This document shows positions 1,854-17,900 of a DNA stretch of 26,067 bases, in pieces. This DNA comes from a virus. The notes below the pieces were generated by a model. The model saw only the letters and a list, made by a program, of their open reading frames with translations. It ran no database searches and was not told the origin of the DNA. The translations under genes were made by a program, and so were the position numbers. Location: IMG/VR virus record IMGVR_UViG_3300042350_001128, positions 1-26,067 of that record; one strand, written 5' to 3'. Each line of letters opens with the position of its first letter. Position 1 is the first letter of the stretch.

Positions 1854-3371
1854 ATGAGTTTGCATTTTTATGATGGACAAATAAGAAGATACTTAACTCA
1901 AATTATTAGAATGATGAGTAACTTCTCATACAAAGATGGAGACGGCGACTTAAGACAAGTTCCGGTAACATACGGCGACTTGACTAGACAAGTTGCTAGT
2001 ATCATGAGAGATAATTCTGAAAACAAAATACCTAGTGCTCCTCGCATGGCAGTTTACGTTACTGGGTTAGAAATGGACAGAAGTAGAACCAGTGATTCAT
2101 CATATGTTAGTAAAGTTCACATTAGAGAACGTGCATACGACACTAACGGAAACGAGTATTTAAATACCCAAGGCAAAAATTACACAGTCGAACGTTTAAT
2201 GCCTACTCCTTACAATTTAGCAGTAAGTGTTGATATATGGACAACTAATACAGATCAGAAACTACAAATACTAGAACAAATATTAATGTTGTTTAATCCT
2301 AGCTTAGAAATACAAACAACAGATAACTTTGTTGACTGGACTAGTTTAAGCGTGATAAATTTAGAAAGTATTACATTTAGCAGCAGAAGTATTCCTGTAG
2401 GTGTTGACTCGGAGATAGACATAGCTACATTAGGATTCAGTACTCCTATATTCATATCTCCGCCGGCAAAGGTAAAACGTCTAGGAGTTATTACAAATAT
2501 TATTACAAGCATATTTAACGAAGCAAACGGATCTATCGATTTAGGAATAAGCTCAGCACAAGGTGCGCTGGAAAATAATAATTTAACCATGCGAGAAGAA
2601 ATAGCAACAGTCGGTGCAGACGGAACAGTCGAAACAACAGTTGACAAGGGTGAATTTCCAAATACCGGAACTGGAGAAATGGACTTTAACGTTAAAAGAA
2701 CATTTGTTCCTGCTGCATTAGGAAGTGCAAACGGTAGTATCGGTATACTAGGACTAGGACTTTATATCAAAAGCGGAAAAGCATACGTTATTGACAAAGG
2801 AGAAGTTGGTACTGTAAATTGGGATGGATTATTTGCACAAGTGCCAGGCTGTTATACTCCTGGTGTAAGTCAAATACGTATTTCAAACGGAGACGGTACG
2901 TATATCATTGGCTACATAACTGTTAATCCATTAGACCCAACAGAGTTAATTGTTGAATGGGACGAAGATACATTTCCTGCAAATACTGTGTTGACCAGCA
3001 GTGCAAGAAATCCTAACAGTTATACTAGCATGGACTACATTATTGATCCGTTACGCTGGAACCCAACTACTAGACTAGTTGTAGGGTTACGTTTATTAAT
3101 ATTAAGTAAAGTAGGCAACGACAACAACGACGATGGGGCAGATGGATGGAAGAGTACAAACAGTCCGTTTGGCGAGCTGGTGGCAGGCGAAAATGATATA
3201 ATTGAGTGGGACGGCGATCAATGGAATATCATTTTCAATGCAAGTGAAAATGCAGATCCGATTTTTATAACTAATTTAGCAACAGGAAGTCAGTATAAAT
3301 GGACTGGCGAATATTGGACTAAAAGTTTCGAAGGCGAATATTCACAAGGATCGTGGGCGCTATTTCCATAA
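1854..3371 (+). CDS. 15: Tail completion and sheath stabiliser protein gp15 (T4-like), extended
   Basis: gp15 caps the finished tail tube and sheath and is the tail-side partner of the gp13/gp14 neck (established for T4). The N-terminus MSLHFYDGQIRRYLTQIIRM parallels T4 gp15 (aromatic-rich start, then FRRYATLMGDL). It is followed by the RQVPVTYGDLTRQ block and a P-x-P-YNLAVSVDIWT...QILEQIL segment corresponding to PIKMIYELSIFTR...QIVEQIL in T4. The gp15-like core is about residues 1-280. At 505 residues the protein is nearly twice T4 length (272). The extra C-terminal half contains acidic, aromatic WDGDQW (452-457) and KWTGEYW (482-488) elements, the look of a surface-exposed decoration or carbohydrate-binding module, but I do not recognise the domain. 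It follows gp14 by 31 bases and probably shares its transcript. Confidence 0.82.
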   Translation: MSLHFYDGQIRRYLTQIIRMMSNFSYKDGDGDLRQVPVTYGDLTRQVASIMRDNSENKIPSAPRMAVYVTGLEMDRSRTSDSSYVSKVHIRERAYDTNGNEYLNTQGKNYTVERLMPTPYNLAVSVDIWTTNTDQKLQILEQILMLFNPSLEIQTTDNFVDWTSLSVINLESITFSSRSIPVGVDSEIDIATLGFSTPIFISPPAKVKRLGVITNIITSIFNEANGSIDLGISSAQGALENNNLTMREEIATVGADGTVETTVDKGEFPNTGTGEMDFNVKRTFVPAALGSANGSIGILGLGLYIKSGKAYVIDKGEVGTVNWDGLFAQVPGCYTPGVSQIRISNGDGTYIIGYITVNPLDPTELIVEWDEDTFPANTVLTSSARNPNSYTSMDYIIDPLRWNPTTRLVVGLRLLILSKVGNDNNDDGADGWKSTNSPFGELVAGENDIIEWDGDQWNIIFNASENADPIFITNLATGSQYKWTGEYWTKSFEGEYSQGSWALFP

Positions 3372-3385
3372 CGCTAATTATTAGT

Positions 3386-3820
3386 ATGAAAAATATTGTT
3401 TGTTCTGGTGCGCTGTTTTATACATTATCCACTAATAGATTTTTATTACTTCATAGAACGCAATCTAAACAAAACAATGTTTGGGGATTAGTTGGCGGTA
3501 CAAATGAAGAACGTGAAACTCCATGGGAAGGGTTAAAACGAGAAATAACTGAAGAAATAGGGATTATGCCCGATATTAAAAAAGTTATTCCATTGGAAAC
3601 ATTTATAAGTAACGATGAACATTTTAAATTTCACACATACTTGTGTGTAATCGACCAAGAATTTTTTCCTACTTTAAACAACGAGCATGACGGATATGCT
3701 TGGGTTAAGTTTGGAAGTTGGCCAAAACCCTTGCATACTGGGTTGGCTAACACTCTTAGACGCAAAGCAAATCAGCAAAAATTAGACACAGTTTTTAAGA
3801 TTGTTGATTTAATTTCGTAA
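3386..3820 (+). CDS. Nudix hydrolase
   Basis: Hydrolyses a nucleoside diphosphate linked to another moiety; the substrate cannot be told from sequence. A textbook Nudix box fills residues 38-60: G38, E44, R52-E53, E56-E57, G59, matching Gx5Ex7REUxEExGU exactly, so the metal-binding glutamates are all present. The length (144 residues) is typical of a single-domain enzyme. The C-terminal WPKPLHTGL suggests a substrate-side loop. The start is the ATG at 3386. An in-frame GTG at 3353 inside gp15 would add 11 hydrophobic residues not expected in this family. It lies 14 bases after gp15 on the same strand, so it is probably co-expressed late with the neck genes. Its 3' end overlaps the convergent 1300-residue gene by 26 bases. 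Phage Nudix enzymes are usually read as nucleotide-pool or RNA-cap enzymes; which one this is remains open. Confidence 0.9.
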   Translation: MKNIVCSGALFYTLSTNRFLLLHRTQSKQNNVWGLVGGTNEERETPWEGLKREITEEIGIMPDIKKVIPLETFISNDEHFKFHTYLCVIDQEFFPTLNNEHDGYAWVKFGSWPKPLHTGLANTLRRKANQQKLDTVFKIVDLIS

Positions 3821-6800
3821 ACTGTTCTTTTAGCCAATCAAAGTCATTAATTTTTCTTAACGCTTCAATGTTGCCTACATTGTCGATACCATACTGCTTA
3901 CCTGCATTTGCACCAGCAATACAATAATCGCCAAATTCTTTATCCTTGCCACGAGTACACCAGACGTTTAATCTAAAATCAGTTTCCTCGTCTCGTTGTC
4001 CGTCAATGGTTTTCGATGACAATTTTACACATTCTCTAAACGCACTTCTCCAAGTACTGAAAGGATCAGTATTAAATTTAGTAATATTGGAAACACGATT
4101 TATAGACTTAAACAATGTAGATATACTTGTAGTCATGTCAGGTTTAGTTGTGTCCATGTTTAGTGTTAGCTCTTTAGGTAACAACTTTACGGCACCATAA
4201 CCGTATACTAAGTTATTAATAGGATTTAGTGATTTCCAAACGTGAACTGTTTTTTTACTATCAGGGTCGTATGTTGGAATATAGTAATCGAAATTAAAAT
4301 TATCAATAATCTCGGCATCGGCATCGACAACCCAGATCATTTCAGACGAACAAAGTCGTGCTGCTTCAATGTGTGCTTGGTGTATGCCGTGAACCCCGTG
4401 TACACGCTTTGCTCTAGGAAACTTTTCTTTTAATTTATTATAATTTGTATCTGCATGTTCCTCGTCTTTGCTTATAAACACAATGTCATAAGTTTTTGGA
4501 TTGCTTGCTACAATGTCGTATTCTTTCTTTTCTAAATAAAATCTATGTGTTACTTCGTGTTCGATTGCTGGAAGTTTTTTACTCATTAATGCTACGCCAT
4601 CGTATGCACTTCCATTTTTAAATATGTGGTGTATGCTTCTTTCAAACCATTGGTTGTGTGGAAAATACAAATCAAATTTAAAATTATTTGCAATGTCAAC
4701 ATCATCAGGAATTGACCAAAACATTTCTGTTTTTGAGTTCTGGACTGCATTTAAATAGTCGGCGTAATTCTTTATAATAAACTTATCATAAACAACTGGA
4801 CCACTTGCAACTATATCCCATTCTTTTCGTTTTGCAATTAATCTGTGTTCCACTTCTTTTTCAGTTAACACTATTTTTTTAGTACACAAAAATAATCCAT
4901 CAAACGATATTTCGTCACCGCACTTGTGTTTAAATACGTGATTTATGTTTCTGTCAAATGTCTCGTGATGACTAAAATACCTATTTAGATTAAACGTGTC
5001 AGAAATTTTTATATTATGTGTGCCCATCCAAAACATGTCAGTAGTTGATTTTTCAAGAGCATCTAAATATTGATCATACGTGTCGATAAAAAAGAAATCA
5101 TACGGCTTAGGATACGATGCAACAATATTATGATCTTTTTTGTTTATATAAAATCTTGTATCAACTTCTTTTTGTGTTGCGACAGCGTGTTTACTAAAAA
5201 GAACAATTCCGTCTCTATAATCTCCGTTAAACATGACATGATTTGTTTTTCTATCATATTCGTTTGAATGATTAAAATTCATATCAAATTTAAAATCACT
5301 TAATACAATTACATCCGAAGGAACGCCCCAGAACAATTCTGTTTTTGAATTTTCCAGTGCATTTAAATAGTCATTATAATTGTTAACTGTAAACTTTTCA
5401 TATTGACCGTTTGTAGATACAACAATATCCCATTCTTTTGCATTGACAACAAATCTGTGTTCTATTTCTTTTTCGGTAATAGGCTTATGTTTGCTTAATA
5501 AGAACACGCCGTTAAATTTTATTTCGTTGTTGTCTTCATGAGCAAATGCATGGTTTTGTTTTCTATCATATTCATTGTCATGAGTAAAATAAATTTTATC
5601 AAGTTCGTTTTCGTTTATTTTAATGTTGTGTGATAACGCCCAAAACATTTCAGTTTTAGTATTATCTAGCGCACTGATATAATCGTCAAATGTTTCTATA
5701 TAAAACTTATCATAAACAACTGGACTGCTTGCAACTATGTCCCACTCTTTTGCGTTAACAATAAATCTGTGTTCTATTTCTTTTTCTGTAACAGTCTTGT
5801 GTTTTGAAATTAAAAATAAACCGTTTCGATAAGTTTTACCTTCAACTTGATGAATGAAACTATGATGCGTTTTTCTGTCGTATTCGTTTTCGTAAGCAAA
5901 ATACAAATCGGGAATTGTGGGTGAAATATTACTGCTACTCATCCAGAACATCTCAGGACCTTCTGCATTCTGAGCCTTTAAATAGTCATTGTAACTGTCA
6001 ATTTTATATACAGGATACTTAACAGGAACAGATGCGACAATGTTCCATTCTTTTCTGTTAACTGGATAACGATAGCTAACTTCATTTTCCGTTAGCGGCG
6101 AGTGTTTGCTGCACAATATCAATCCGTTGTAGTAAACATCATCATTGACTTTATGAATAAATGCATGATTTATTGTTCTGTCATATTCATTGTCATGGGT
6201 AAAATATATGCTAGAAAAATCAAACATTGTTGTATCAATATTTTTGGTTGAAATCCAAAACATTTCAGTTTTAGAATTATCGAACGCATTTAAATAATCG
6301 TTATAATTTTCTACATTGAATTTGTCGTAAACAACCGGTGTACTTACAATGTCGTTCCACTCTTTTCGTTCAACAGGGTGTCTATATTTGATTTCTTTTT
6401 CTGTTAATACTTTATGTTTACTGCACAGCATTAAACCATTTTTATATAACTCGTCGTTTACTTTATGTAAAAATATGTGTGTTTGTTCACGGTCAACTCG
6501 GTTGTGCCAATCTATGTAAAAATTGTTTATGTAATCATGATCTACAGATATGTTATTTGTTGATACCCAAAATAGTTCTGTTGTGGTTTTGTTTAGTGCA
6601 TCTAAATAATCATTATAATTTTCTACGTTGAATATATCATAGGATTTTGGGTGCGATGCAACTACATCCCATTCTTTTTTTTCTATATAAAACCGATGTT
6701 CGAACTCTTTTCTAGTTACAGGGCTTCTTTTAGAAAACAATACTATTCCGTCATACAAGTCTTTGTTTTTAAAAACATGTGTAATATCTCTATCAAACAT

Positions 6801-7697
6801 GTTATAAAAATCAAAATTAATTGAAAAGTCAAAATCTTTTTCAACTATTACGTCTGTTGGAATATGCCAAAACAATTCTGTTTTTGAAGTTTTTAACGCT
6901 GATTCATAATCTTCATATGTGTCAAAAGAAAATGTTTCGTAATTTCTAGGTTTACTTGCTACTTGTTTTACTTGTTTCTTTTGTGCTAGAAATCTATATT
7001 CAAGTTCTTTGTCTGTTGGAATATAACTTTTAGGCATTAGCGCAATACCGTCAAACTTATCATTTTTTCCATTGCCAAACAAGTGAGGATATTTAAAACT
7101 CCACTCGTCGGGTTCGTAATCAAACTCAAATGTGTTGTCTATAATTAGGTCGTCGTACACAATCCAAAACATATCTGTTACTGCTAATCTCATAGCGTCT
7201 TGATAGGTTTTAACTGCTATTGCTTCAGGGAATCTTTTTCTTAAATCTTCCCATGTACCAGTTTCTTTGTCTCCTAAGAAGAAAATGTCAAAGTTGTGTT
7301 TTCCTCTATACACATCGTAGTCACCACAAATGTTGGTTTCGGTTACAAGTTGTGTTTCGTCGTTTATAGTAGTTGGCACAAGTCTAACTTTTTCCCAGCT
7401 ACTTACACGCTTGCTTTCTTTAAAAACATAAGGAAAACAAATAGTACATCCATAGTCGTCACGTTTGGGTTTGTAATGCCACGGAAACGATCTATACACT
7501 TCAATATCTTTATCGACTACCCATACGTAATCTGACTTATCTTTGAACTTATCAAGTTGTTTTAAATCGTAGTTCTTTGCATCTTCTACATACAAGATTG
7601 GAAATCTTTGCAAGATATGATTTTTTAAAACATCTTGTGCATTATAAGTCTTTTTACTAAATTTTTTAAAACGTTCAACTGTATTCATTTGTCTCAT
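3795..7697 (-). CDS. Giant tandem-repeat glycosyltransferase-like protein
   Basis: 1300 residues, no signal peptide or membrane segment. Residues 1-135 hold a Rossmann-like stretch ending SDYVWVVDKDIEV (DxD at 62/64). Residues 136-241 form a second module with TDMFWIVYDDLII. Residues 242-1059 are eight tandem repeats of 99-104 residues (xEMFW at 273, 373, 477, 581, 682, 786, 886, 990). Residues 1060-1300 are a full C-terminal module with SEMIWVVDADAEI (DxD at 1125/1127). The terminal modules look like GT-A nucleotide-sugar-binding domains. The inner repeats align with the same core strand but have lost DxD (for example ISTKNI, VSTNNI). It overlaps the glycosyltransferase gene upstream by 23 bases, so is probably translationally coupled; the ATG at 7688 is an equally good start. 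C-terminal modules of this kind occur in marine T4-like phages as I recall them. Activity, target and the purpose of the repeats are unknown. Confidence 0.8.
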   Translation of the reverse strand: MRQMNTVERFKKFSKKTYNAQDVLKNHILQRFPILYVEDAKNYDLKQLDKFKDKSDYVWVVDKDIEVYRSFPWHYKPKRDDYGCTICFPYVFKESKRVSSWEKVRLVPTTINDETQLVTETNICGDYDVYRGKHNFDIFFLGDKETGTWEDLRKRFPEAIAVKTYQDAMRLAVTDMFWIVYDDLIIDNTFEFDYEPDEWSFKYPHLFGNGKNDKFDGIALMPKSYIPTDKELEYRFLAQKKQVKQVASKPRNYETFSFDTYEDYESALKTSKTELFWHIPTDVIVEKDFDFSINFDFYNMFDRDITHVFKNKDLYDGIVLFSKRSPVTRKEFEHRFYIEKKEWDVVASHPKSYDIFNVENYNDYLDALNKTTTELFWVSTNNISVDHDYINNFYIDWHNRVDREQTHIFLHKVNDELYKNGLMLCSKHKVLTEKEIKYRHPVERKEWNDIVSTPVVYDKFNVENYNDYLNAFDNSKTEMFWISTKNIDTTMFDFSSIYFTHDNEYDRTINHAFIHKVNDDVYYNGLILCSKHSPLTENEVSYRYPVNRKEWNIVASVPVKYPVYKIDSYNDYLKAQNAEGPEMFWMSSSNISPTIPDLYFAYENEYDRKTHHSFIHQVEGKTYRNGLFLISKHKTVTEKEIEHRFIVNAKEWDIVASSPVVYDKFYIETFDDYISALDNTKTEMFWALSHNIKINENELDKIYFTHDNEYDRKQNHAFAHEDNNEIKFNGVFLLSKHKPITEKEIEHRFVVNAKEWDIVVSTNGQYEKFTVNNYNDYLNALENSKTELFWGVPSDVIVLSDFKFDMNFNHSNEYDRKTNHVMFNGDYRDGIVLFSKHAVATQKEVDTRFYINKKDHNIVASYPKPYDFFFIDTYDQYLDALEKSTTDMFWMGTHNIKISDTFNLNRYFSHHETFDRNINHVFKHKCGDEISFDGLFLCTKKIVLTEKEVEHRLIAKRKEWDIVASGPVVYDKFIIKNYADYLNAVQNSKTEMFWSIPDDVDIANNFKFDLYFPHNQWFERSIHHIFKNGSAYDGVALMSKKLPAIEHEVTHRFYLEKKEYDIVASNPKTYDIVFISKDEEHADTNYNKLKEKFPRAKRVHGVHGIHQAHIEAARLCSSEMIWVVDADAEIIDNFNFDYYIPTYDPDSKKTVHVWKSLNPINNLVYGYGAVKLLPKELTLNMDTTKPDMTTSISTLFKSINRVSNITKFNTDPFSTWRSAFRECVKLSSKTIDGQRDEETDFRLNVWCTRGKDKEFGDYCIAGANAGKQYGIDNVGNIEALRKINDFDWLKEQFTKLNQQS
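4521..6974 (-). repeat. Eight tandem ~100-residue repeats inside the 1300-residue protein
   Basis: Residues 242-1059 of the 1300-residue protein. Each unit runs: VAS-x-P-x-x-Y-D, then Y-x-D-Y-x-x-A, then S-K-T-E-M-F-W, then N/F-E-Y/F-D-R-x-x-x-H-x-F, then DG/NG-L-x-L-x-SKH, then TEKE-x-x-x-RF, ending KKEW. Spacing of the EMFW landmark is 100, 104, 104, 101, 104, 100 and 104 residues. Two length classes mix: short units with FKN-x-x-x-YDG (first, sixth, eighth) and longer ones with HKVND-type insertions. DNA-level similarity is visible between units, suggesting fairly recent or ongoing duplication. Confidence 0.9.
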
Positions 7698-8286
7698 CTA
7701 AAATAAATGCTTTTATTCCGTAGTGTGCTACTTGTTTACTCAAGTCAACGTCGATAAAAGTTTTGAATCCATACTCGTTTGCTTGTCTGCAAAAATAAAT
7801 ATCTTCACCTACAAAGTTGTCTTCTGCTTCGTTATAAATGTGAGTAAACCACGGCTTAGGTAACGTTTCAAAAACTTTTCGACTTACTAACATGCATCCC
7901 ATTCCAACTGCCCAAACTTTATGCAAGCCTGTTTTAGCATCTAGCCTAGCATCTAGATCGTGTTGATTAATAAATGCAACACTTCTTAATGGTTTAACTC
8001 TTGTGCTATAAGTTGCAGCAACAATATCTTTATTGTGTGCGAGCAACTGATCGACTGTGTCTTTTGGAAAGTGCATGTCACTGTCAAGCCAAAGTAAATA
8101 GTCCGATCCACTTTGTAATGCACGATTTGCTAGTATTTGTCGTAGGTCTGGAATAACAGTTCCTAAGGCAGAAAATATTTCAAAATCTACACCGGACTTT
8201 GCCAAGTGCGAAGTTAAATTAGCAAGAGACTTGGCAAATCCTAGGTGTACATAGTTGTGTGAAGGAATGCATATTGCAATTTTCAT
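7675..8286 (-). CDS. GT-A (family 2-like) glycosyltransferase
   Basis: 203-residue cytoplasmic glycosyltransferase that should transfer sugar from a nucleotide-sugar donor; acceptor unknown. It starts with the family opening MKIAICIPSH, has the metal-binding DSD at 68-70 within SDYLLWLDSDMHFP, a VGEDIYFCRQANEYG segment with the catalytic-type acidic pair E161-D162, and a late histidine in VAHYG (188) of the kind that completes the metal site. All core elements are therefore present in a compact single domain with no membrane helix. Its ATG overlaps the preceding stop by one base (TAATG), and its own end overlaps the 1300-residue glycosyltransferase-like gene, so the three genes are probably translated as a coupled unit. 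The position after the fibre genes suggests modification of virion or host surface glycans, but nothing in the sequence proves it. Confidence 0.85.
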   Translation of the reverse strand: MKIAICIPSHNYVHLGFAKSLANLTSHLAKSGVDFEIFSALGTVIPDLRQILANRALQSGSDYLLWLDSDMHFPKDTVDQLLAHNKDIVAATYSTRVKPLRSVAFINQHDLDARLDAKTGLHKVWAVGMGCMLVSRKVFETLPKPWFTHIYNEAEDNFVGEDIYFCRQANEYGFKTFIDVDLSKQVAHYGIKAFILDETNEYS

Positions 8287-8687
8287 TAGACTAGCTCTTG
8301 ACTAATCAAATCTAGATTCAATTCCTTTTCAGTTGCTAGTGTAAGTTTGTTTAGTTTGTTTGCAGTACTTGTTGCTTTTTTTACAACCTCTGCAAATTCT
8401 TTTTCAGGAAGCAGTGCCATTGCTAACATTGTTTCTGGTTGTACTTTACCTAAAGTTAGAAGATCTGCCGCTGCACGGTTACCAAAATGTTCAATCCAAT
8501 GATGTTTGTCATCGGCTTCTGCTCTACTTAAAACTTCTTCTTCGGTTTCACTGCCTAAGATTTTAGTTTTAATAGATTGTTCTAGATCTTTATCTTCTAA
8601 ATTAATAGATTTTAATTTTTTAAGTTTTCTTGCCTTACTAAATTCAGTAGCAAGAATAACATTCTCGAGTTCATATGCTGTTATCAT
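8286..8687 (-). CDS. Small helical protein of unknown function
   Basis: 133 residues that I do not recognise. The sequence is hydrophilic and mostly helical in character, rich in Lys, Glu, Leu and Ala, with no signal peptide, membrane segment or cysteine. A central segment HHWIEHFGNRAAADLLTLG (about 62-80) looks like the most structured part. The C-terminal half is a run of amphipathic helices. The start ATG has GGAG nine bases upstream. It lies 18 bases after the 57-residue gene and overlaps the glycosyltransferase start by one base. Its place directly between a fibre-type structural gene and a glycosyltransferase would suit a fibre assembly factor or a virion protein, but this is only context. 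Confidence 0.75.
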   Translation of the reverse strand: MITAYELENVILATEFSKARKLKKLKSINLEDKDLEQSIKTKILGSETEEEVLSRAEADDKHHWIEHFGNRAAADLLTLGKVQPETMLAMALLPEKEFAEVVKKATSTANKLNKLTLATEKELNLDLISQELV

Positions 8688-8705: not shown

Positions 8706-8879
8706 TTAACTACCCTGACCACCGAATGTGGCACTAAGACAAATAAATGTACCTGAAGAAATACCTAAGTATGTTCCTAGTACACCCATGAATATAGGAG
8801 TTCCGGAAAGCCCGAAGTAAGTGTTTACATCGCTCATACAAATGAGACTACCTGTTGGTGGTAACGATCCTGTTGCCAT
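8706..8879 (-). CDS. 57-residue fibre-associated small structural protein
   Basis: Hand-translated small gene, start MATGSLPPTGSLICMSD, stop TAA. The ribosome site AGGAA lies six bases upstream of the ATG at 8879. The protein is glycine-, serine- and threonine-rich and contains an internal near-duplication: VNTYFGLSGTPIFM (about 18-31) and LGTYLGISSGTFIC (about 34-47), that is (N/G)TYxGxSxTxI. The opening PPTGSLICMSDVNTYFG resembles short proteins (P-x-x-G-x-I-S-x-x-D-I/V-N) that sit beside fibre or tail genes in marine T4-like phages as I recall them. I infer a virion accessory, perhaps a fibre tip or adaptor. It lies between the 3874-residue fibre and the 133-residue gene on the same strand, behind a candidate late promoter. 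Confidence 0.7.
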   Translation of the reverse strand: MATGSLPPTGSLICMSDVNTYFGLSGTPIFMGVLGTYLGISSGTFICLSATFGGQGS

Positions 8880-8930: not shown

Positions 8931-8957
8931 AGGATAGCCAAGGTTTTTGGCTATCCT
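8931..8957 (-). terminator. Hairpin after the 3874-residue fibre gene
   Basis: Perfect 10-base stem AGGATAGCCA (8931-8940) with TGGCTATCCT (8948-8957) around a 7-base loop. It begins five bases past the fibre stop codon. No strong U-run follows on the minus strand, so it may be a 3'-end stabiliser rather than an efficient intrinsic terminator. It may also serve as the 5' stem-loop of a transcript started at the octamer just upstream. Confidence 0.65.
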
Positions 8958-8962
8958 TACTT

Positions 8963-11900
8963 TTATTTATCGAGTACTTTCTGAAGCATTGATCTCAACT
9001 CGTCAATTTGTCTTTGCTGTTCTTTAAACGCTTCGATAAATGCACCAGCAAAAGCACCGTAGTTAACTGACTTAATACCGTCCTCGCCTTCATGCACAAC
9101 TTCTGGGAAATATTTCTCAACTTCTTGTGCAATAACACCCATATGTCTACGTTCGGTGTCTTCTTTATCGGTTCTTGTAAATGTCACACCACGTATGCTT
9201 AATATCTTGGTTAGCGGATCTGCAATAACTTCAATGTTATCTTTAACTCTAACGTCAGAGAACGCACAAACATCACCGGTTGCAGTAAACGTTCCTGCGC
9301 CAGTTAGTACTGCGGCTTGTGTAGTTCCACCGTACCATCTGAAGTATGTGGTAGCACTGGCAGTCGGAACACTGTGCCACAATGTACTGCTTCCGATGCC
9401 TATTGCATAATCCACTGCCGCAGCACCTATATTTGGATACAACAACAGTTTAGTACCGGCGCTTCTTGTGGTAAATGTCGGCAAGTCGACTCCGTTGACG
9501 TTCCAGTCAATTCTGTTACCACTTGCACCATTTAGATAAAGCTGACTGCTACCTGCTGTAGCATTATTTGCACCAGATAGTATCAATGTTTGTGTACTTG
9601 GGTTTATACTGAAGTTAGTGTTAACAAGACCAGTTTGTGCACCTGTGGTGTTTGCAACAAACGTAATGTATCTTGTTGCGTTTGTCGAGTCAGTTGCAAT
9701 GCTTTGTAGTGTATCAGTGTTTGTGTCGGTGTCACTCCATGGAACGTTTACTACCAAATTGTCACTGCCATCGACTTGAACTGCATATGTTCTGCTTGCT
9801 GTTGCACTAACTGCGTTTGATGCAACTGTTTGTGTAGTAGCATTTACGTTTGCATTAAATGTTGTGCCGCTTAATGTTAATCCTGTTCCTGCTGTATAAG
9901 TTGTATTAGTATCAGTTGAGCTAATTGTAATAGTATTTGCATCAGTTCTTGTTACTGTTACGTTTGTGCCAGACGCGAACGTAACATTATCAGTTGATGC
10001 ATCGCTGCCTGTAAGTCTTAAATTGGCACCACCGACTACAGTTTCTGAACTAATACTATAGGTTGTATTAGTGTCAGTGACAGTTTCGGTTGCAGTTGTT
10101 AACCCAGTTACGTGACCGTATGTATCAAGATTAACACTCTGAATGTATGTTCTGCCAGTATTAGATAACGAACTTTGACCACTTGTATTTGAGTGACTGA
10201 TTGTTATTCGATCTGCGACTGTATCAGCTACTAGATCAATACCGTTTGTGCTATCTAATGCTCCTGCTCTAATATATAGCGTATCATTGTTACTGTCTGC
10301 AACAACTGTATCAATTGTAGTACCATCAGATTGTTCAAGTCTGATGTTTTTAAATATATTCTGCGAGCTGCCGAGATCGGTGTTTGTAATACGAATAGCA
10401 TCATTTGTTGCATCGATGTTAACACTAATACCAGTACCGCTTACTATCATTAATGTGTCTCCAGTAGTGTCTGCAACCGCACTACCTGACGTTGACCATG
10501 TATACCCGACGTCAGTGGTTAACGTAATAGTTCCAAAATCCGAACTTTGACTAGTCAAGTAAGTTGCAGTTGTAACCGCAGTTACGTGACCCATTTCGTC
10601 AACGGTTATACTTGCAATACCAGCACTTCCTTGCGCACCACTTAACGTCGAAGTATCAGCGTGAGCAATTTTTATTGCATCAGTACCTGCTACTGTATTT
10701 GTAAATAAGTCAATACCGGCAGTTGATCCAGTTAACCCACGAACAAATGTTATTGTATCAGTATTGCTTTCTGCCGCTTGAGTTGTATTGGTATTTGCAG
10801 TTCCCCATGTATAGCCAGCATCTGCACCGATTGAAGCGTTTGCAAACGCATAATTGCTTGCAGTATTCCATACTACTGTACTAGAAACAGTATTTGTCCA
10901 AGCAGCAGATCCATCTACAGATACACCGGCTGTACCTGTTACATCTCCAGTTAGCGTAACTGTAGCAGTTCTTGCTGTTGCCCACTTAGTTGCTGTTGCT
11001 GCGTTACCAGAAACACTAATTGAATATGTACCTGTTAGTCTGTCGCTAGGCACTGTACCGCTTGTTAGCTGGCTAGCATTAAGAGTTGTTAATCCACTAC
11101 CGTTGCCGTTAAATATACCATTAGAGTATACGTTTCCGGCAACACCTAAACCTCCGCCGATAATAACAGCACCGGTTGTATGGCTAGATGAAGCAGTGGT
11201 GTCGCTAAATGTCTTAGCTCCTGCCATAGTCTGAGTACCACCCAGTCGAGCTCCGTCTACAGTACCACTTGATAAGTTTGACGCATTAAGAGTTGTTAAT
11301 CCGCTACCGTTGCCAGTGATTGTACCGCCAAGATGAATGTTTCCAGCAACACCCAACCCGCCTCCGATAATAACAGCACCAGTTATAGTACTAGAAGAAG
11401 CAGTAGTATCGCTAAATGTCTTGACTCCTGCCATTGTTTGGTTTCCGCCTAGGCGAGCACCTGCTACTGTTCCACTGGTTAGTTCAGTAGCATTAAGAGC
11501 AGTTAAACTTGTACCTACACCGGAGAATCCACTGGTTCCACCAAATGTTAATGTTGTTGTACTAGCTGTTAAACTAACACCCGGAATACGGAAGTTGGTT
11601 ATACTACCATTACCTAGTGTAATTTCGTTGCTGGTTGTACTTGTGCTTGCATCTGCATTATAACCGATAACAATGTTATTGCTACCCAATGCAATGCTGT
11701 CGCCGGCATTACTACCGATAGCAACGTTTTGTTTACCAGTGGTAATTGCAAGTGCTTGATATCCAACTGCAACGTTGTTTGTAGCTGTATCACTTACAGT
11801 GCCGGTTGTGTTTTGCATTGATTGAGCACCAACAGCAACGTTGTATCCGGCATTTGCTGCGGCTTGTGCTAGTGCATCATTTCCTACCGCAGTATTATGT

Positions 11901-14900
11901 GTCGAGCTAGTAACAAGAGCCAATGCTGTATTACCGAGTGCAACGTTATCTGTGCCTGTAACAACAGCACCCATTGCACCGACACCGACTACTAGGTTGT
12001 CAGTACCGGTGCTTATAGCTTGTCCACCTGCTATTGCAAGATTGGTTGCACTATTTCCGCCACCACGACCAACTTTGTGGCTGTTTACAGTTATATCACT
12101 GGTAAATGTTTTGCCTGCTTGCGATGTAGGCAAATAGGAATCACTTATAGTACCAGAACTTATATTCGAAGCGTTTAGAGTTGTTAGTCCACTACCATTA
12201 CCAGTGAATGTACCACCAGAGTGAACATTTCCAGCAATACCAACACCGCCGTCAACAACTAATGCACCTGTTGTAGTGCTGCTCGAAGCAGTTGTTGCAT
12301 CTATGTTTACATTTGGTTTAAGAGCAATAGCATTGCTACCAGTTGTACTTGTGAAAACAATAAAGTCATTTGATCCGTCTGTGATACTTAACCCGTCTGC
12401 TAAGTTTGTAGGAAATACAATTTCGTTTTCAGTGGTTGCACCCTTGAAGTTTACACTTTCACTTAGGTACAAGTCTCTCCATGCAAGTGAACTTGTACCC
12501 AAGTCTCGAGCATCATTTGTACTTGGTTCTAGGTTGCTATCCATACGTCCTACAAATGTTATAGTATCAGAAGTGGCATTACCTAAATTGATATCTCCGT
12601 TTAGATCTGTTTGTCCTGTTACAGTTAGTGTACCTGCAACAGTTGTGTTACCGCTTGCTACTACTACACGGAATTTTTCAGAACCGCTCGCACCGATATC
12701 AAAGTTAGTGCCGTCAAAACGGAAGTTTGCATCATCTTCTAATGCACCACTGGTTCCTGCAATGACAATACGGTTATTGGTTAGATCACTTATAATTGCA
12801 CTGGCTAGAGTTGATTCACCAGTAACACCCAATGTTCCTGCAACGGAAGTATTGCCACTTGAAGCAGTTACAGTAAATTTATTTGTATTAACTGAAAAAT
12901 CGCCGCCGATGTCTCCTAGTCCAGAAACATCTAATGTGCCAATAGTTGCTGTTCCGTTGACATTTATGTTTGTAGCTGTTAGATTTCCTTCAAACGCATC
13001 TGCAACGACAGTGCCGAGACTAAACGATGCATCAGCGACATTGATGTTGCCACTTATTTCAGGATCATACTCGTCAAAGAATTTAAACTTTTGATCTGTA
13101 ACATCAAAGAAGAATCCTAAATGAGTGTACCCTACGCCGGATGTTCCTGTGTTTCTGTTTCCAGTAACGCCAACATCAACGTTTACTGGCGAAGCACTAC
13201 CTGACCAACTGTCGTTTAGTGTATGTCCTGTCGTCGATACCCATACAACACTGATACCGTCTGCTAGTGCCACTGGATCTGTATCTACGTCAATATCAGT
13301 TGCTTCTGTTGTAGAGAAGTTGTCCAATGACCATTCAAACGTATCAACTCCTCCGGTACCACCACCTTCGCTGTCTATTCTTACATAGAATGTTTGTGTT
13401 GTTGTACCTTCGTAGTGTCCTACTAGTGTAGCATCATCTAAGCCACTGCCTGAAAATGTTGTTCCGTCGGCACCTATTGTGTCTCCAGAATTTAAATATA
13501 TAAAACTAGAGTCAACTTCTAAGTTGTTCAATTTAACACTAGATTGACTACCTAATACTATTAAGTCTCCTGCAACTGTAACATCAGCATCAAAGTATGC
13601 ACCTTCGGTGACTCTAAATTTTTCTACTGTGTGACTTCTTAGTTCAATGTAAATTGATCCTGTGCTTGCATTACTGGTTAAACAGACACCAATATCAACT
13701 GGGAAGTTAGGATAATCAGGTGCAGTTTGCACTAGTGTTCCCGGAGTATCAAACCCTAAGTGAATCTTTTGTCCAGATGTTAAGTTACTGGTATCGATAC
13801 CGTCGATATATCCACTAACAATAACATAACCTTCTGCTCCGTTTGCAATATTATGTCCTGCTAATCCTATAACTTCTATTTTGTTAATATCACTGGCGTC
13901 GGCTAACGCAACTGTCGGATAACGTCCAAAAATAGCGTGTCCTGCAATATAAACACCTGTTATGTAAACGGGTTGACCTTTATTAATAGTTGCGCCTGAA
14001 CTGTTGCGGCAACGAATAAATTCACGTTCACCTACTGTAATGTCAAAATTGCTGTTGTTACTAAACAACACCAATGATTCAAAATCGCTGTCATAGTATA
14101 GTCTGCCTTCTTGGTATGACGGACGACTCGAATATGCAGTTGGCGAAAAGTCTATACGACCTAAGTTAGCTTCAGTTACGTTAACTGTACCGTTGACGTA
14201 TAAGTTTTCTGCAATGCCAACTCCGCCGTCAACAACTAACGCACCTGACGTATAACCAGTCGATCCTGTGGTTGAATTAAATGTTACACTACCGTCAACT
14301 GTTAGAGCGTCATCTACCTTTACGTCTCCTGTAAATGTTGCTAGACCACTGGTGTCTATAGTTAGACGTGTAGTTGATGTTTGTTCGATAGCACTAGACG
14401 ACCCAACTTCGCCTGTTTTTACAACAAAGTTGCCGCCAGTTGCATTACCTGTTCCTAGTCCAGCTTGTATAGTAAATGCGCCGCCGGCTATGTTTGTTCC
14501 TATACCGCTTTCACCTTTGAGTGTTGCATTTGCAGTACTGCTACTTGCTTCTGCGCTACCAAAAATAACATTTCTGTTTCTTATTAACATTGTGTTATCT
14601 TTAGTAAGTGTTCCTGCAACAGGCGATGACGAACTTACAGTAACATTTGCATCGGTCTGTATAGTAAAGCTAGTAGCGTTAAATGTTGCGCCTAGTACTG
14701 GCCATTGTCCATCTAAGTTAGAAACAGTGCTACTAGCTATGTTAACGGTGTCGCCTGCTCTGATGCCTAATGTAAACGGAGTATAGGTAAATGTTAATGT
14801 TGTACTTGACGATATTGTTCCAGTTGTTTCTGCACTCAAATAAACATAATCAGTTGTAACACCGGAAACTGTTGTATTTGCAGGAATACTAGCAGAACCA

Positions 14901-17900
14901 GTTACTAACATGCCTGCTAGTATTCCACTGGTACTTGCCATTGGAACTTCTTTGTCACCATTTCCAGTAATACCGTCTGTTGCTGCGGTAAAAGATTCTA
15001 AGTTTACTGTTACTGTTGTTGAGGAGGTTGCATCGTAGTTGTCAATGAAACTTGTTATATTTCTTGTAGCAGTACTCTTACCTATTTTTACAGTTTCGGC
15101 AGCAGATCCTAATTCTAGTGTAGTAACATTATCATTGTATACCAAACCAATTCCTGTGCTTGTTGAAGAAAGTCTTGCTGATCCTACGTCTAGCCCTTCT
15201 GCTAGATCTAGTGCAGTACTCCATTCAGGTGTTGTACCATTAGATTTCAAGAAGTTGTTGGCTCTTCCAATGTTTAGTGTGTTTAGTGTACTTGTAGACT
15301 GAGCATATATAAGGTCGCCTTGTGAATATGCTGATAGGTTAGTTCCGCCCTTGTTTACAGGAACATTAGAAGTTAAGTTTGAAGGATCTAGGAAATAAGC
15401 ACTATCAAGGCTGTCTAGTGTTCCTGCATCTACAACTCCATCCTTGATAAACACTTGTCCTGACGCACCAGTGTCTACATCAAATTGACTTTGTAAGAAT
15501 CTAGCAGTTCCGAGTGTCGAATATAGTTCGCCAGGATCGTAATCAACATTAGCAATACCAATACTTACGTCTCCGTAGTATTCTCCTGATATGTTAGAAC
15601 CTGTAAGTGTTATAGGGTTATCAGTTGTATTTGCTTCTATTAAATTCTGTACTACAACTCGATAGCTGCTATCTCCGTACAATACAGTATCAGAATTTGC
15701 TGTTCCCGAACCTGCTAATCTAGTAGGTGATACAATACCTGAAATAATGTTACTTGCATCTATGTTTGTAACAGCTAAACTATTCCAGTTTGCTTTTAGT
15801 CTACTGCTTGTATTAACAACGCCGTTTACCTGTACGTTTTGTAATATTACAGTTGCATGACCAACACCTGTTGATGTAATATTCTTTGCACCTACAACTA
15901 ACCCGTTACTACTAGCAAGTGCGTCACTTCTTAGTTCGTGTAGTGTAAAGCTGTTGGTTGTTACAGATCCAATAAAGAATCTGCTGCCGTCGACTATCTC
16001 TGTAGAAGCTATATCAGGTAATGCAGAAACTGAACTTCCATCATTTTCAATGCTGATTTTTATAGCGTCTCCTGTTGCAAATCCATGATTAACTACAGTA
16101 ATACTATTGTCAGCAATGTTAACTACGTATCTAGTTAAGTTGTGATTGTTGTTTGCCGGAGTACTTAAAAATTCTATTTTATTAACTAAACTAAAATCTT
16201 CATACAGTTCGATTGTATTAGCAGTAATACTTTTTGCATAATAAACTTCGCCATTTATCATGCCGCCTATAGCAACGTTTCCTAGAGTATTATATGTTAC
16301 TGGATCGCCATTTGAATATCCATGGTTTGTTATAGTAATTCTATAATTTACATAATCGACGTTGCCGCCAGCACCTGTGTCCCCGGCTAAGAAATTGTGG
16401 CTAATCGAATCTTCTAAATCAATAATTTGCTTTGTAAGGGGAGCATCGTTGTCTTCGACAAAATCTACAGATGACGTACTTGCAACAAAAAGCTCTCCGC
16501 CTATAATGTTAACATAGGCACGTTTTTCAACAGCAGTGATTTCAATTTCAAAATCGTGTCCGAGACCTACGCCGTCAAAGTTCGGATTGACCGAAAGCAG
16601 ATCACCGACAGCATATCCTGTGCCGCCTCTTCGAATGTCAACATCTACGATACAAGCATCAGTAACTGTTAGATCAGCATATGCACCAGTTCCTACACCG
16701 GTTACAGATGTCAACGGAATCATTTCCCAAACATATGTACCTGTTGCAGGAGCATAGTCAAATCCTGGTGTAAAGTTTGTATTATCAACGTTTGTACACA
16801 CACCGTATCTTGTTTCTGTAACAGCACCTTGTGCGTTTCCGTCGGCGCTGGTTACAAGAGTATAAGCATAGCCTGTGGCTGCTTTAATTGATTCATTTGC
16901 TCCAGTGTTTGCAATAGTAAATGTAGTATTTGTAGGTATCGACAACACTATACCGTTTCCATCGTACAAGTGGTCGTTAGCATCTACTCTTACACTGTTA
17001 CCAACTCTTAGATTATGATTTGTCGAAGTTGTGATTGTTGCAACGTTGCTGGATCTTGAAACAAAGGTAATTGCCGCACTAGTAAAATTATAATCGTCGT
17101 CATTTGACAATATCAAATACTGGCTGCTATTAGAACTTTTTAAGAAGAAGTTATCTATAATTGCACTGCTAGTACCTTTGCTTGACGGTTTTATACCGGA
17201 ATCGACGTTGTTAACATACAGGTTAGGAGCCGATACTCCTGTATCCCACGGGTCGCCAGTGCTGTCGTCAGTTGCATCCCATTCGCCTTCAACAGAAGCA
17301 ACAAGTAAGTTTAGTGATGCACCGTAATTTCCCTTTGCATATCCTACGGCACCAGCAATGCCAGGTTGACTGATTTCGTCACCGTCGTTTACTGTTATAC
17401 CAGATGGCAATGTAAGTTCTACCTGTTCATATTCTTCAGTTGCAATGTCTCCTGCTTTTAAGTCTACAGCAGGAATTTCGTCGACTTGTAATAGTCTAGA
17501 TAGATATCCTTGTGTTGTTGTACTAGTAAACTGTCTTGTTGCTGGAATCAATTCAGGGTTTAATTGACCGTTAGTATTAAGTTGTACAATTGCACCAGGA
17601 ACAGCAGCCGTTGATACTGCCTTGTCAATAAATCCACCTAGTCTGTTTGATAAGAAACTTCTAATAGCCAACTGTGTTGACAAGCGTGAATTGCTAGAAC
17701 CACCTAGTTCGTCATCGCCTAAGTTAACGTTTGTTGAAATTTCTTCAATTGCAATATCTGATAATGTTAGTCGTAGTGCATCGAGCTCGTCAACCTGTAC
17801 CTTGTTTCTAAATGTAATATTACCGGTTCTGTTGTATGCTGTAATAAAAGTGCCAACTTTAAAGTCTCCAAGTTCGTTTGTGCCTGATGTATAAACACGA

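What the first reader, a model, noticed from the sequence alone, without database searches (positions are those of the whole stretch)
3795..7697. Tandem array of degenerate glycosyltransferase pieces capped by two DxD-bearing modules
Seen: eight ~100-residue repeats (residues 242-1059) plus a transitional module (136-241) share one core strand, x-E-M-F-W, with the C-terminal module SEMIWVVDADAEI and the N-terminal SDYVWVVDKDIEV. Only the two end modules keep DxD; inner copies read ISTKNI, VSTNNI, MSSSNI or IPTDVI at that place. Known: DxD in GT-A enzymes binds the metal and nucleotide sugar. Inference: the protein may have grown by duplicating a GT-A half-domain, with inner copies turned into a scaffold, sugar-binding ruler or decoy, and the ends possibly catalytic. 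I know of no described phage system with this architecture. It is the best candidate here for something new.
Basis: partly seen in the sequence, partly recalled or inferred. Interest (0 to 1): 0.78.

Follow-up and report, generated by a model that had tools for sequence, protein, structure and literature searches.

The report
Phage sugar-transferase with degenerate repeats
A phage protein looks like one intact sugar-adding enzyme at the end of a chain of worn-down copies of its own core, and related uncultured phages carry from none to sixteen such copies, which suggests that the copies have become an adjustable arm for the enzyme.

Summary
The repeats are real. The 1300-aa ORF (3795-7697, minus strand) holds an N-module, a transitional module, eight ~100-aa repeats and a C-terminal ~235-aa module. 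A repeat model trained on three other phages finds nine copies at 66-115 bits; 200 shuffles reach 14.5 at most. Repeats are homologous to stand-alone C-modules (profile score 71; 20 shuffles, 18.8 at most). The C-module predicts as a GT-A fold. DxD is kept in 137 of 137 distinct C-like domains and in 0 of 358 distinct repeats. Repeats also lack the first beta-alpha unit and the C-terminal half. Relatives carry 0 to 16 repeats; end copies are orthologous by position, middle copies expanded. Repeats are under purifying selection. In the window's lineage the gene sits beside tail-fibre genes and a small glycosyltransferase. Best reading: one catalytic GT-A domain carrying a non-catalytic pseudo-GT arm that positions the acceptor; arm function and target are inferred. 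No tblastn match in the phage collection.

The parts
3795..7697 (-). whole ORF, 1300 aa: N-module, transitional module, eight inner repeats, C-module
3798..4520 (-). C-terminal GT-A module (aa 1060-1300), the only module whose DxD is conserved in the family; also found stand-alone in other phages
4317..4325 (-). DxD motif of the C-module (D1125-A-D1127)
   Evidence: both D invariant in 77 of 77 rows of A2 (numbering) and in 137 of 137 distinct C-like domains
4521..4820 (-). inner repeat r9 (aa 960-1059), motif SIPDDV; orthologous to the last repeat of other long proteins
4821..5132 (-). inner repeat r8 (aa 856-959), motif MGTHNI
5133..5432 (-). inner repeat r7 (aa 756-855), motif GVPSDV
5433..5744 (-). 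inner repeat r6 (aa 652-755), motif ALSHNI
5745..6047 (-). inner repeat r5 (aa 551-651), motif MSSSNI
6048..6359 (-). inner repeat r4 (aa 447-550), motif ISTKNI; has no position orthologue in L005, whose protein has one repeat fewer
6360..6671 (-). inner repeat r3 (aa 343-446), motif VSTNNI
6672..6971 (-). inner repeat r2 (aa 243-342), motif HIPTDV
6975..7298 (-). transitional module (aa 134-241, r1): keeps beta1-alpha1 but reads YDD where the C-module has DxD
   Evidence: Z 8.6 to GT-A enzyme B4GALNT1
7299..7616 (-). N-module (aa 28-133), a further degenerate repeat; DKD here, DxD in only 8 of 42 distinct relatives
7675..8286 (-). small GT-A-like glycosyltransferase gene (203 aa, phrog_1574); overlaps the start of the repeat gene; directly upstream in 70 of 71 window-type loci whose upstream gene is held
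8286..8687 (-). 133-aa gene of unknown function (phrog_1409-like), upstream of the glycosyltransferase gene
8963..20587 (-). 3874-aa fibre-like protein ending in a Peptidase_S74 chaperone; neighbour and possible acceptor (inferred)
3353..3820 (+). NUDIX hydrolase gene, convergent neighbour; next downstream in 94 of 94 window-type loci

Best explanation
The protein is a phage GT-A glycosyltransferase with a single catalytic domain, the C-terminal ~235-aa module, carrying a long arm made of ten degenerate copies (N-module, transitional module, eight inner repeats) of the core of such a domain. The copies cannot be ordinary transferases: they lack DxD, the first beta-alpha unit (kept only in the transitional module) and the acceptor half. 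They are kept by purifying selection and their number is changed by gain and loss in the middle of the array. Shown here: repeats, homology to the C-module, loss of DxD, copy-number range, selection, gene context. Inferred: the C-module transfers a sugar from a nucleotide-sugar donor; the arm binds or positions a long or repetitive acceptor, like non-catalytic GT-fold accessory domains of known enzymes, so that the C-module can modify it. In the window's lineage the likeliest acceptor is the phage's own tail fibre, whose genes lie upstream together with a second glycosyltransferase; a host surface glycan is the main alternative.
For: GT-A C-module: pLDDT 91.9 and pTM 0.81 for aa 846-1300; 124 Foldseek matches at E 0.001 or better, the best 50 shown being glycosyltransferases, best E 3.1e-6; Z 11.8, rmsd 2.7 over 138 residues to B4GALNT1. 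DxD in 137 of 137 distinct C-like domains and 0 of 358 distinct repeats. Repeat-C-module homology score 71.2 against at most 18.8 in 20 shuffles. Copy number with N-module and C-module both present, 72 proteins: 3 (5), 5 (39), 7 (1), 8 (6), 9 (10), 11 (5), 16 (6). Positional orthology at both ends and a central expansion cluster in a tree of 117 repeats from 18 proteins. dN/dS of inner repeats 0.067 and 0.092, of the C-module 0.022 and 0.060, in two close pairs. Conserved columns in 295 inner repeats: Y23, G76, L79, E90 at 1.00, H66 0.99, F35 0.96, W36 0.93. Context. Precedent: the LH3 accessory domain, a GT-fold domain thought to have lost catalysis and possibly to recognise collagen (PMC6082870, passages); a mimivirus collagen glucosyltransferase with catalytic and adjacent accessory Rossmann domains (PMC11838735, one passage).
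Against: No binding or activity evidence exists. Inner repeats alone gave no strong fold match (best Foldseek E 0.044; VIA rows centre on 128-254), and pTM 0.50 leaves their mutual arrangement unknown. Foldseek TM-scores for the C-terminal model are low (0.18-0.27 by query length among the 50 rows shown), because the match covers one domain of the model. No Pfam, NCBIfam or PDB-sequence family is met. A hairpin lies between the fibre gene and the cassette, so joint transcription with the fibre is not shown. Most related loci outside the window's lineage lie in sugar and radical-SAM clusters, which fits host-glycan work as well.
Confidence: 0.45

Rival explanations
1. The enzyme modifies a host surface glycan (O-chain-like) during infection, to exclude other phages, and the arm binds that polysaccharide.
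For: C-module genes outside the window's lineage sit among radical SAM, UDP-sugar dehydrogenase and epimerase genes. Pelagimyophage host-recognition clusters with glycosyltransferases and radical-SAM cassettes were read as O-chain modification by their authors (PMC7029224, passages).
Against: In the window's lineage the gene is not in such a cluster but between fibre and neck/tail genes, in 94 loci of that type.
Confidence: 0.3
2. The repeats are a spacer or ruler: their number sets how far the catalytic domain reaches or how long a product chain becomes.
For: Copy number ranges 3 to 16 with conserved ends. Repeat number and length of the giant fibre ORF rank together (Spearman 0.94, 12 genomes; 0.94 within the six with eight or more repeats).
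Against: The 12 genomes are not independent (near-identical contigs, two clades) and one of 13 complete cases, L182/G012, was left out for its broken array; repeat number changes 3.2-fold while fibre length changes 1.10-fold. Polar conserved positions (D61, R62, N65, H66, E90, R94) suggest more than spacing.
Confidence: 0.15
3. The array is neutral expansion without function.
For: Copy number is labile; L017 carries a 69-aa loss across two repeats and L072 has the gene split in two frames.
Against: dN/dS 0.067 and 0.092 in inner repeats; position-wise orthology across proteins that share about 50-60% identity.
Confidence: 0.05
4. The protein is a virion part (receptor-binding or fibre-associated arm) and the C-module binds rather than transfers sugar.
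For: Position next to fibre and neck genes.
Against: DxD and many pocket-like positions invariant in the C-module; stand-alone C-modules in sugar clusters.
Confidence: 0.12

Closest known systems
GT-A fold glycosyltransferases (B4GALNT1, WrtF, SunS/ThuS, RmlT and others)
   Same: Predicted fold and DxD of the C-module.
   Different: No sequence family met; donor and acceptor unknown; array of degenerate cores in front.
LH3/PLOD3 and mimivirus R699: catalytic GT domain plus accessory GT-fold domain
   Same: A catalytic GT-fold domain joined to a GT-fold domain held to be non-catalytic (PMC6082870 and PMC11838735, passages).
   Different: One accessory domain of full size, not 3-16 truncated copies; no sequence relation tested here; LH3 has an added hydroxylase domain.
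Pelagimyophage host-recognition cluster glycosyltransferases
   Same: Large phages, glycosyltransferases beside tail-fibre genes, radical-SAM cassettes (PMC7029224, passages).
   Different: The passages seen describe no repeat array; the window's lineage has another gene order (gp15-NUDIX).
UniProt A0A6J5LK21 and A0A6J5L5L5 (uncultured Caudovirales phage, uncharacterized)
   Same: Very strong structural matches (E 2.8e-28 and 3.9e-27), probably members.
   Different: Not described; their sequences were not examined here.
POMGnT1 stem / FAM3 domains
   Same: A non-catalytic domain beside a glycosyltransferase that binds sugar (PMC9802357, passages).
   Different: Another fold (beta-beta-alpha), one copy; an analogy only.

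Membership tests
GT-A fold glycosyltransferase (C-module) | GT-A fold | tested here: met
   pLDDT 91.9 model; Foldseek E 3.1e-6; Z 11.8 over 138 residues
GT-A fold glycosyltransferase (C-module) | DxD motif at the end of the core strand | tested here: met
   137 of 137 distinct C-like domains
GT-A fold glycosyltransferase (C-module) | binds nucleotide-sugar and transfers sugar | not testable with these tools
   needs biochemistry
Pfam glycosyltransferase family 2 (PF00535, PF13641) | score at or above the curated cut-off | tested here: not met
   no such hit for the window C-module; best in relatives 25.0 bits against a cut-off of 27 for PF13641 in L125
GT-A domain (inner repeats) | homology to a GT-A domain | tested here: met
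   score 71.2 against stand-alone C-modules, shuffles 18.8 at most; against the ~300-aa paralogues only 16.5, not significant
GT-A domain (inner repeats) | DxD motif | tested here: not met
   0 of 358 distinct repeats
GT-A domain (inner repeats) | first beta-alpha unit and acceptor half | tested here: not met
   absent from predicted secondary structure; the transitional module does have the first unit
GT-A domain (inner repeats) | structural match to solved GT-A enzymes on its own | tested here: inconclusive
   best Foldseek E 0.044 for aa 1-970; VIA rows centre on 128-254
LH3-type catalytic plus accessory GT architecture | non-catalytic GT-fold domain joined to a catalytic one | tested here: met
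   sequence criteria only; likeness of plan, not kinship
LH3-type catalytic plus accessory GT architecture | lysyl hydroxylase domain | tested here: not met
   no such Pfam hit in the protein

The most novel reading that the evidence does not exclude
The array is a modular reader: each degenerate GT-A module binds one unit of a repetitive acceptor (fibre repeat or polysaccharide unit), in two flavours (PxD-type and S/TxN-type), and phages tune specificity and reach by adding or dropping modules, a pseudo-enzyme counterpart of other one-module-one-unit repeat proteins.
Probability: 0.12. Interest if true: 0.88.

Novelty: new variant of a known kind. Interest (0 to 1): 0.6.

Why it matters
Pseudo-enzyme domains usually occur once beside an active one. 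Naturally occurring series from 0 to 16 copies make the question of what such copies do directly testable, and the C-module family itself is a widespread phage transferase for which no donor or acceptor is known from these calls.

Tried and rejected
Two catalytic ends: rejected, N-module DxD in 8 of 42. Inner repeats as active enzymes: rejected on motif and missing elements. Repeats derived from the ~300-aa upstream paralogue: not supported (hhalign score 16.5, E 0.072). Known protein family: Pfam, PHROGs and NCBIfam gave only weak or sub-cut-off hits to this protein; PHROGs phrog_37395 (E 0.0043) and phrog_29110 (E 0.0096) hit repeats weakly. PDB by sequence profile: none up to E 10. Cultured phages: tblastn of the whole protein (E 1e-3), of an L055 C-module (E 10: three weak matches, E 5 to 7), of the L074 two-domain protein (E 1) and of the L089 paralogue (E 0.1) gave no relative; the tool warns that records very near the window may be left out. 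Literature: eight full-text searches on GT repeats, pseudo-GTs, rulers, virion glycosylation, phage sugar clusters, jumbo phages and the two accessions listed no description of such an array; subscription papers are not held. Promoter scan: no more sites than in shuffles (26 against 25.2). T4 late-promoter motif TATAAATA (recalled): 0 matches. Fibre-length ruler: correlation seen but confounded.

Full report
What is there. The ORF at 3795-7697 (minus strand) is 1300 aa long. It lies in a fragment of a tailed phage with a T4-type tail sheath stabiliser gene (PF16724, E 7.7e-26), a NUDIX gene, a small glycosyltransferase and two very large fibre-like proteins. The record held is this 26,067-base fragment only. 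The closest phage records to the gp15 gene are large phages (Sinorhizobium phage Phosso 32.7%, the PA5oct group about 30%); in one of that group, vB_Pa-PAC2, the order gp15-NUDIX-hypothetical-long tail fibre matches the window except for the glycosyltransferase cassette. In Phosso and Atu_ph07 the neighbours of gp15 differ.

Repeats. The strand motif recurs at nine places before the C-module. An HMM trained on 10 repeats of three other phages gives nine copies 66.2-114.6 bits, the C-module core 32.8 and the N-module 9.7; 200 shuffles give at most 14.5. Copies in the window are 21-54% identical to each other. They come in two flavours, about 100 aa with PxD and about 104 aa with S/TxN at the DxD place.

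Origin from a GT-A domain. The C-module occurs alone in other phages. Among the 77 loci's new set (L077-L153), 61 proteins without an N-module had 0 (33), 1 (7), 2 (2), 3 (6), 4 (5), 5 (7) or 7 (1) repeats; some of these are cut by contig ends, so their counts are lower bounds. Aligning 295 distinct inner repeats with 30 distinct stand-alone C-modules gives E 1.1e-11 and score 71.2; 20 column shuffles reach 18.8. Against 30 of the ~300-aa paralogues that often stand upstream, the score is 16.5, no better than shuffles. AlphaFold2 for aa 846-1300 is confident (pLDDT 91.9), and the C-module matches GT-A enzymes. For aa 1-970 pLDDT is 88.6 but pTM 0.50; only the transitional module drew clear GT-A matches (Z 8.6), the inner repeats none (Foldseek best E 0.044). 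Element order in the models shows why: an inner repeat is beta-alpha-beta(FW)-beta-alpha-beta-beta-alpha-long beta, the middle slice of the C-module without its first beta-alpha unit and without its C-terminal helices.

Loss of the motif. Of 358 distinct repeats of at least 80 aa, none has D at both DxD places and none has D at the first; the commonest pairs are P/D 111, S/N 66, T/N 35, Y/D 29, W/D 22. Of 137 distinct C-like domains of at least 170 aa, paralogues included, all have both. The N-module keeps DxD in 8 of 42 and is a degenerate repeat by profile.

Evolution. In 72 proteins with N-module and C-module, repeat numbers (transitional included) are 3 (5), 5 (39), 7 (1, the partly deleted L017), 8 (6), 9 (10), 11 (5) and 16 (6); 45 of these are distinct by their last 400 residues. 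A tree of 117 repeats from 18 chosen proteins, drawn without support values, groups first, second and last copies by position and puts the middle copies of the long proteins in one cluster. Close pairs show dN/dS 0.067 and 0.092 for inner repeats and 0.022 and 0.060 for the C-module; in two distant pairs, near saturation, the C-module is 0.118 and 0.117 and the rest 0.274 and 0.18. So the repeats evolve somewhat faster than the C-module but under constraint.

Context. 94 of the 153 loci (the window piece L001 included; L016 and L082 come from one contig) are of the window type, defined by any of five neighbour clusters; the NUDIX gene is next downstream in 94 of 94 and the small glycosyltransferase next upstream in 70 of 71 whose upstream gene is held. 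The exception is L072, where the gene itself is split. In the other 59 loci the C-like paralogue is next upstream in 24 of 59, and neighbours include radical SAM, UDP-sugar dehydrogenase and epimerase genes. Eighteen bacterial contigs, mostly metagenome-assembled and including Bdellovibrionota-type and Roseibium records, encode relatives of the C-module; the C-module HMM marked an ORF in 17 of 18 and no repeat array was seen.

Fibre length. Of 16 upstream regions fetched, 12 hold the giant fibre ORF whole (3577-3943 codons, stop to stop) and 4 are cut. With the window and without L182/G012, whose array is broken, 12 genomes give Spearman 0.94, and 0.94 in the six with eight or more repeats. 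The genomes are not independent, and 3.2-fold in repeats goes with 1.10-fold in fibre length, so a proportional ruler is unlikely, though a link is not excluded.

Mechanism. The most economical reading is one active GT-A domain with a pseudo-GT arm. The arm's role in holding the acceptor is inferred from precedent (LH3 accessory domain, PMC6082870, passages), from strict conservation of surface-type polar positions and from the fibre context; nothing here shows binding. Virion glycosylation is known in other phages (mentioned in PMC12619734, passages). Host-glycan modification, as proposed for pelagimyophage clusters (PMC7029224, passages), is the main rival for the target.

Novelty. GT-A enzymes and single accessory GT domains are known; an array of up to 16 truncated, motif-less copies beside one intact copy was not found in the searches made. 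Two UniProt entries of uncultured phages, named uncharacterized, match the model very strongly, so sequences of this kind are deposited but, as far as seen, undescribed.

Noticed in passing
window 8931-8957: Hairpin with a 12-bp stem just past the stop of the giant fibre ORF, before the cassette; may separate transcription of fibre and cassette.
   Followed up: partly
window 8706-8879 (-): 57-aa ORF between hairpin and the 133-aa gene, glycine- and serine-rich, beginning MATGSLPPTGSLICMSDVNTYFG; possibly a small structural protein.
   Followed up: no
L072: The repeat gene is split into ORFs of 692 and 244 aa in two frames; real or a sequence error.
   Followed up: no
L017: 69 aa shorter than L005, the loss running from within one repeat into the start of the next.
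   Followed up: no
L099:4369-7716: Protein continues about 230 aa beyond the C-module.
   Followed up: no
L074, L125, L138, L145, L155, L157: Two C-like domains fused in one protein without repeats.
   Followed up: partly
L019, L021, L023, L026, L032: 16-repeat type proteins come with an extra 672-677-aa gene between giant fibre and cassette.
   Followed up: no
L087-L153 type loci: Phage clusters with several radical SAM/SPASM genes, UDP-sugar dehydrogenase and epimerase around C-module genes.
   Followed up: partly
L158, L161: Bacterial relatives with the C-like domain inside larger proteins of 654 and 1244 aa.
   Followed up: no
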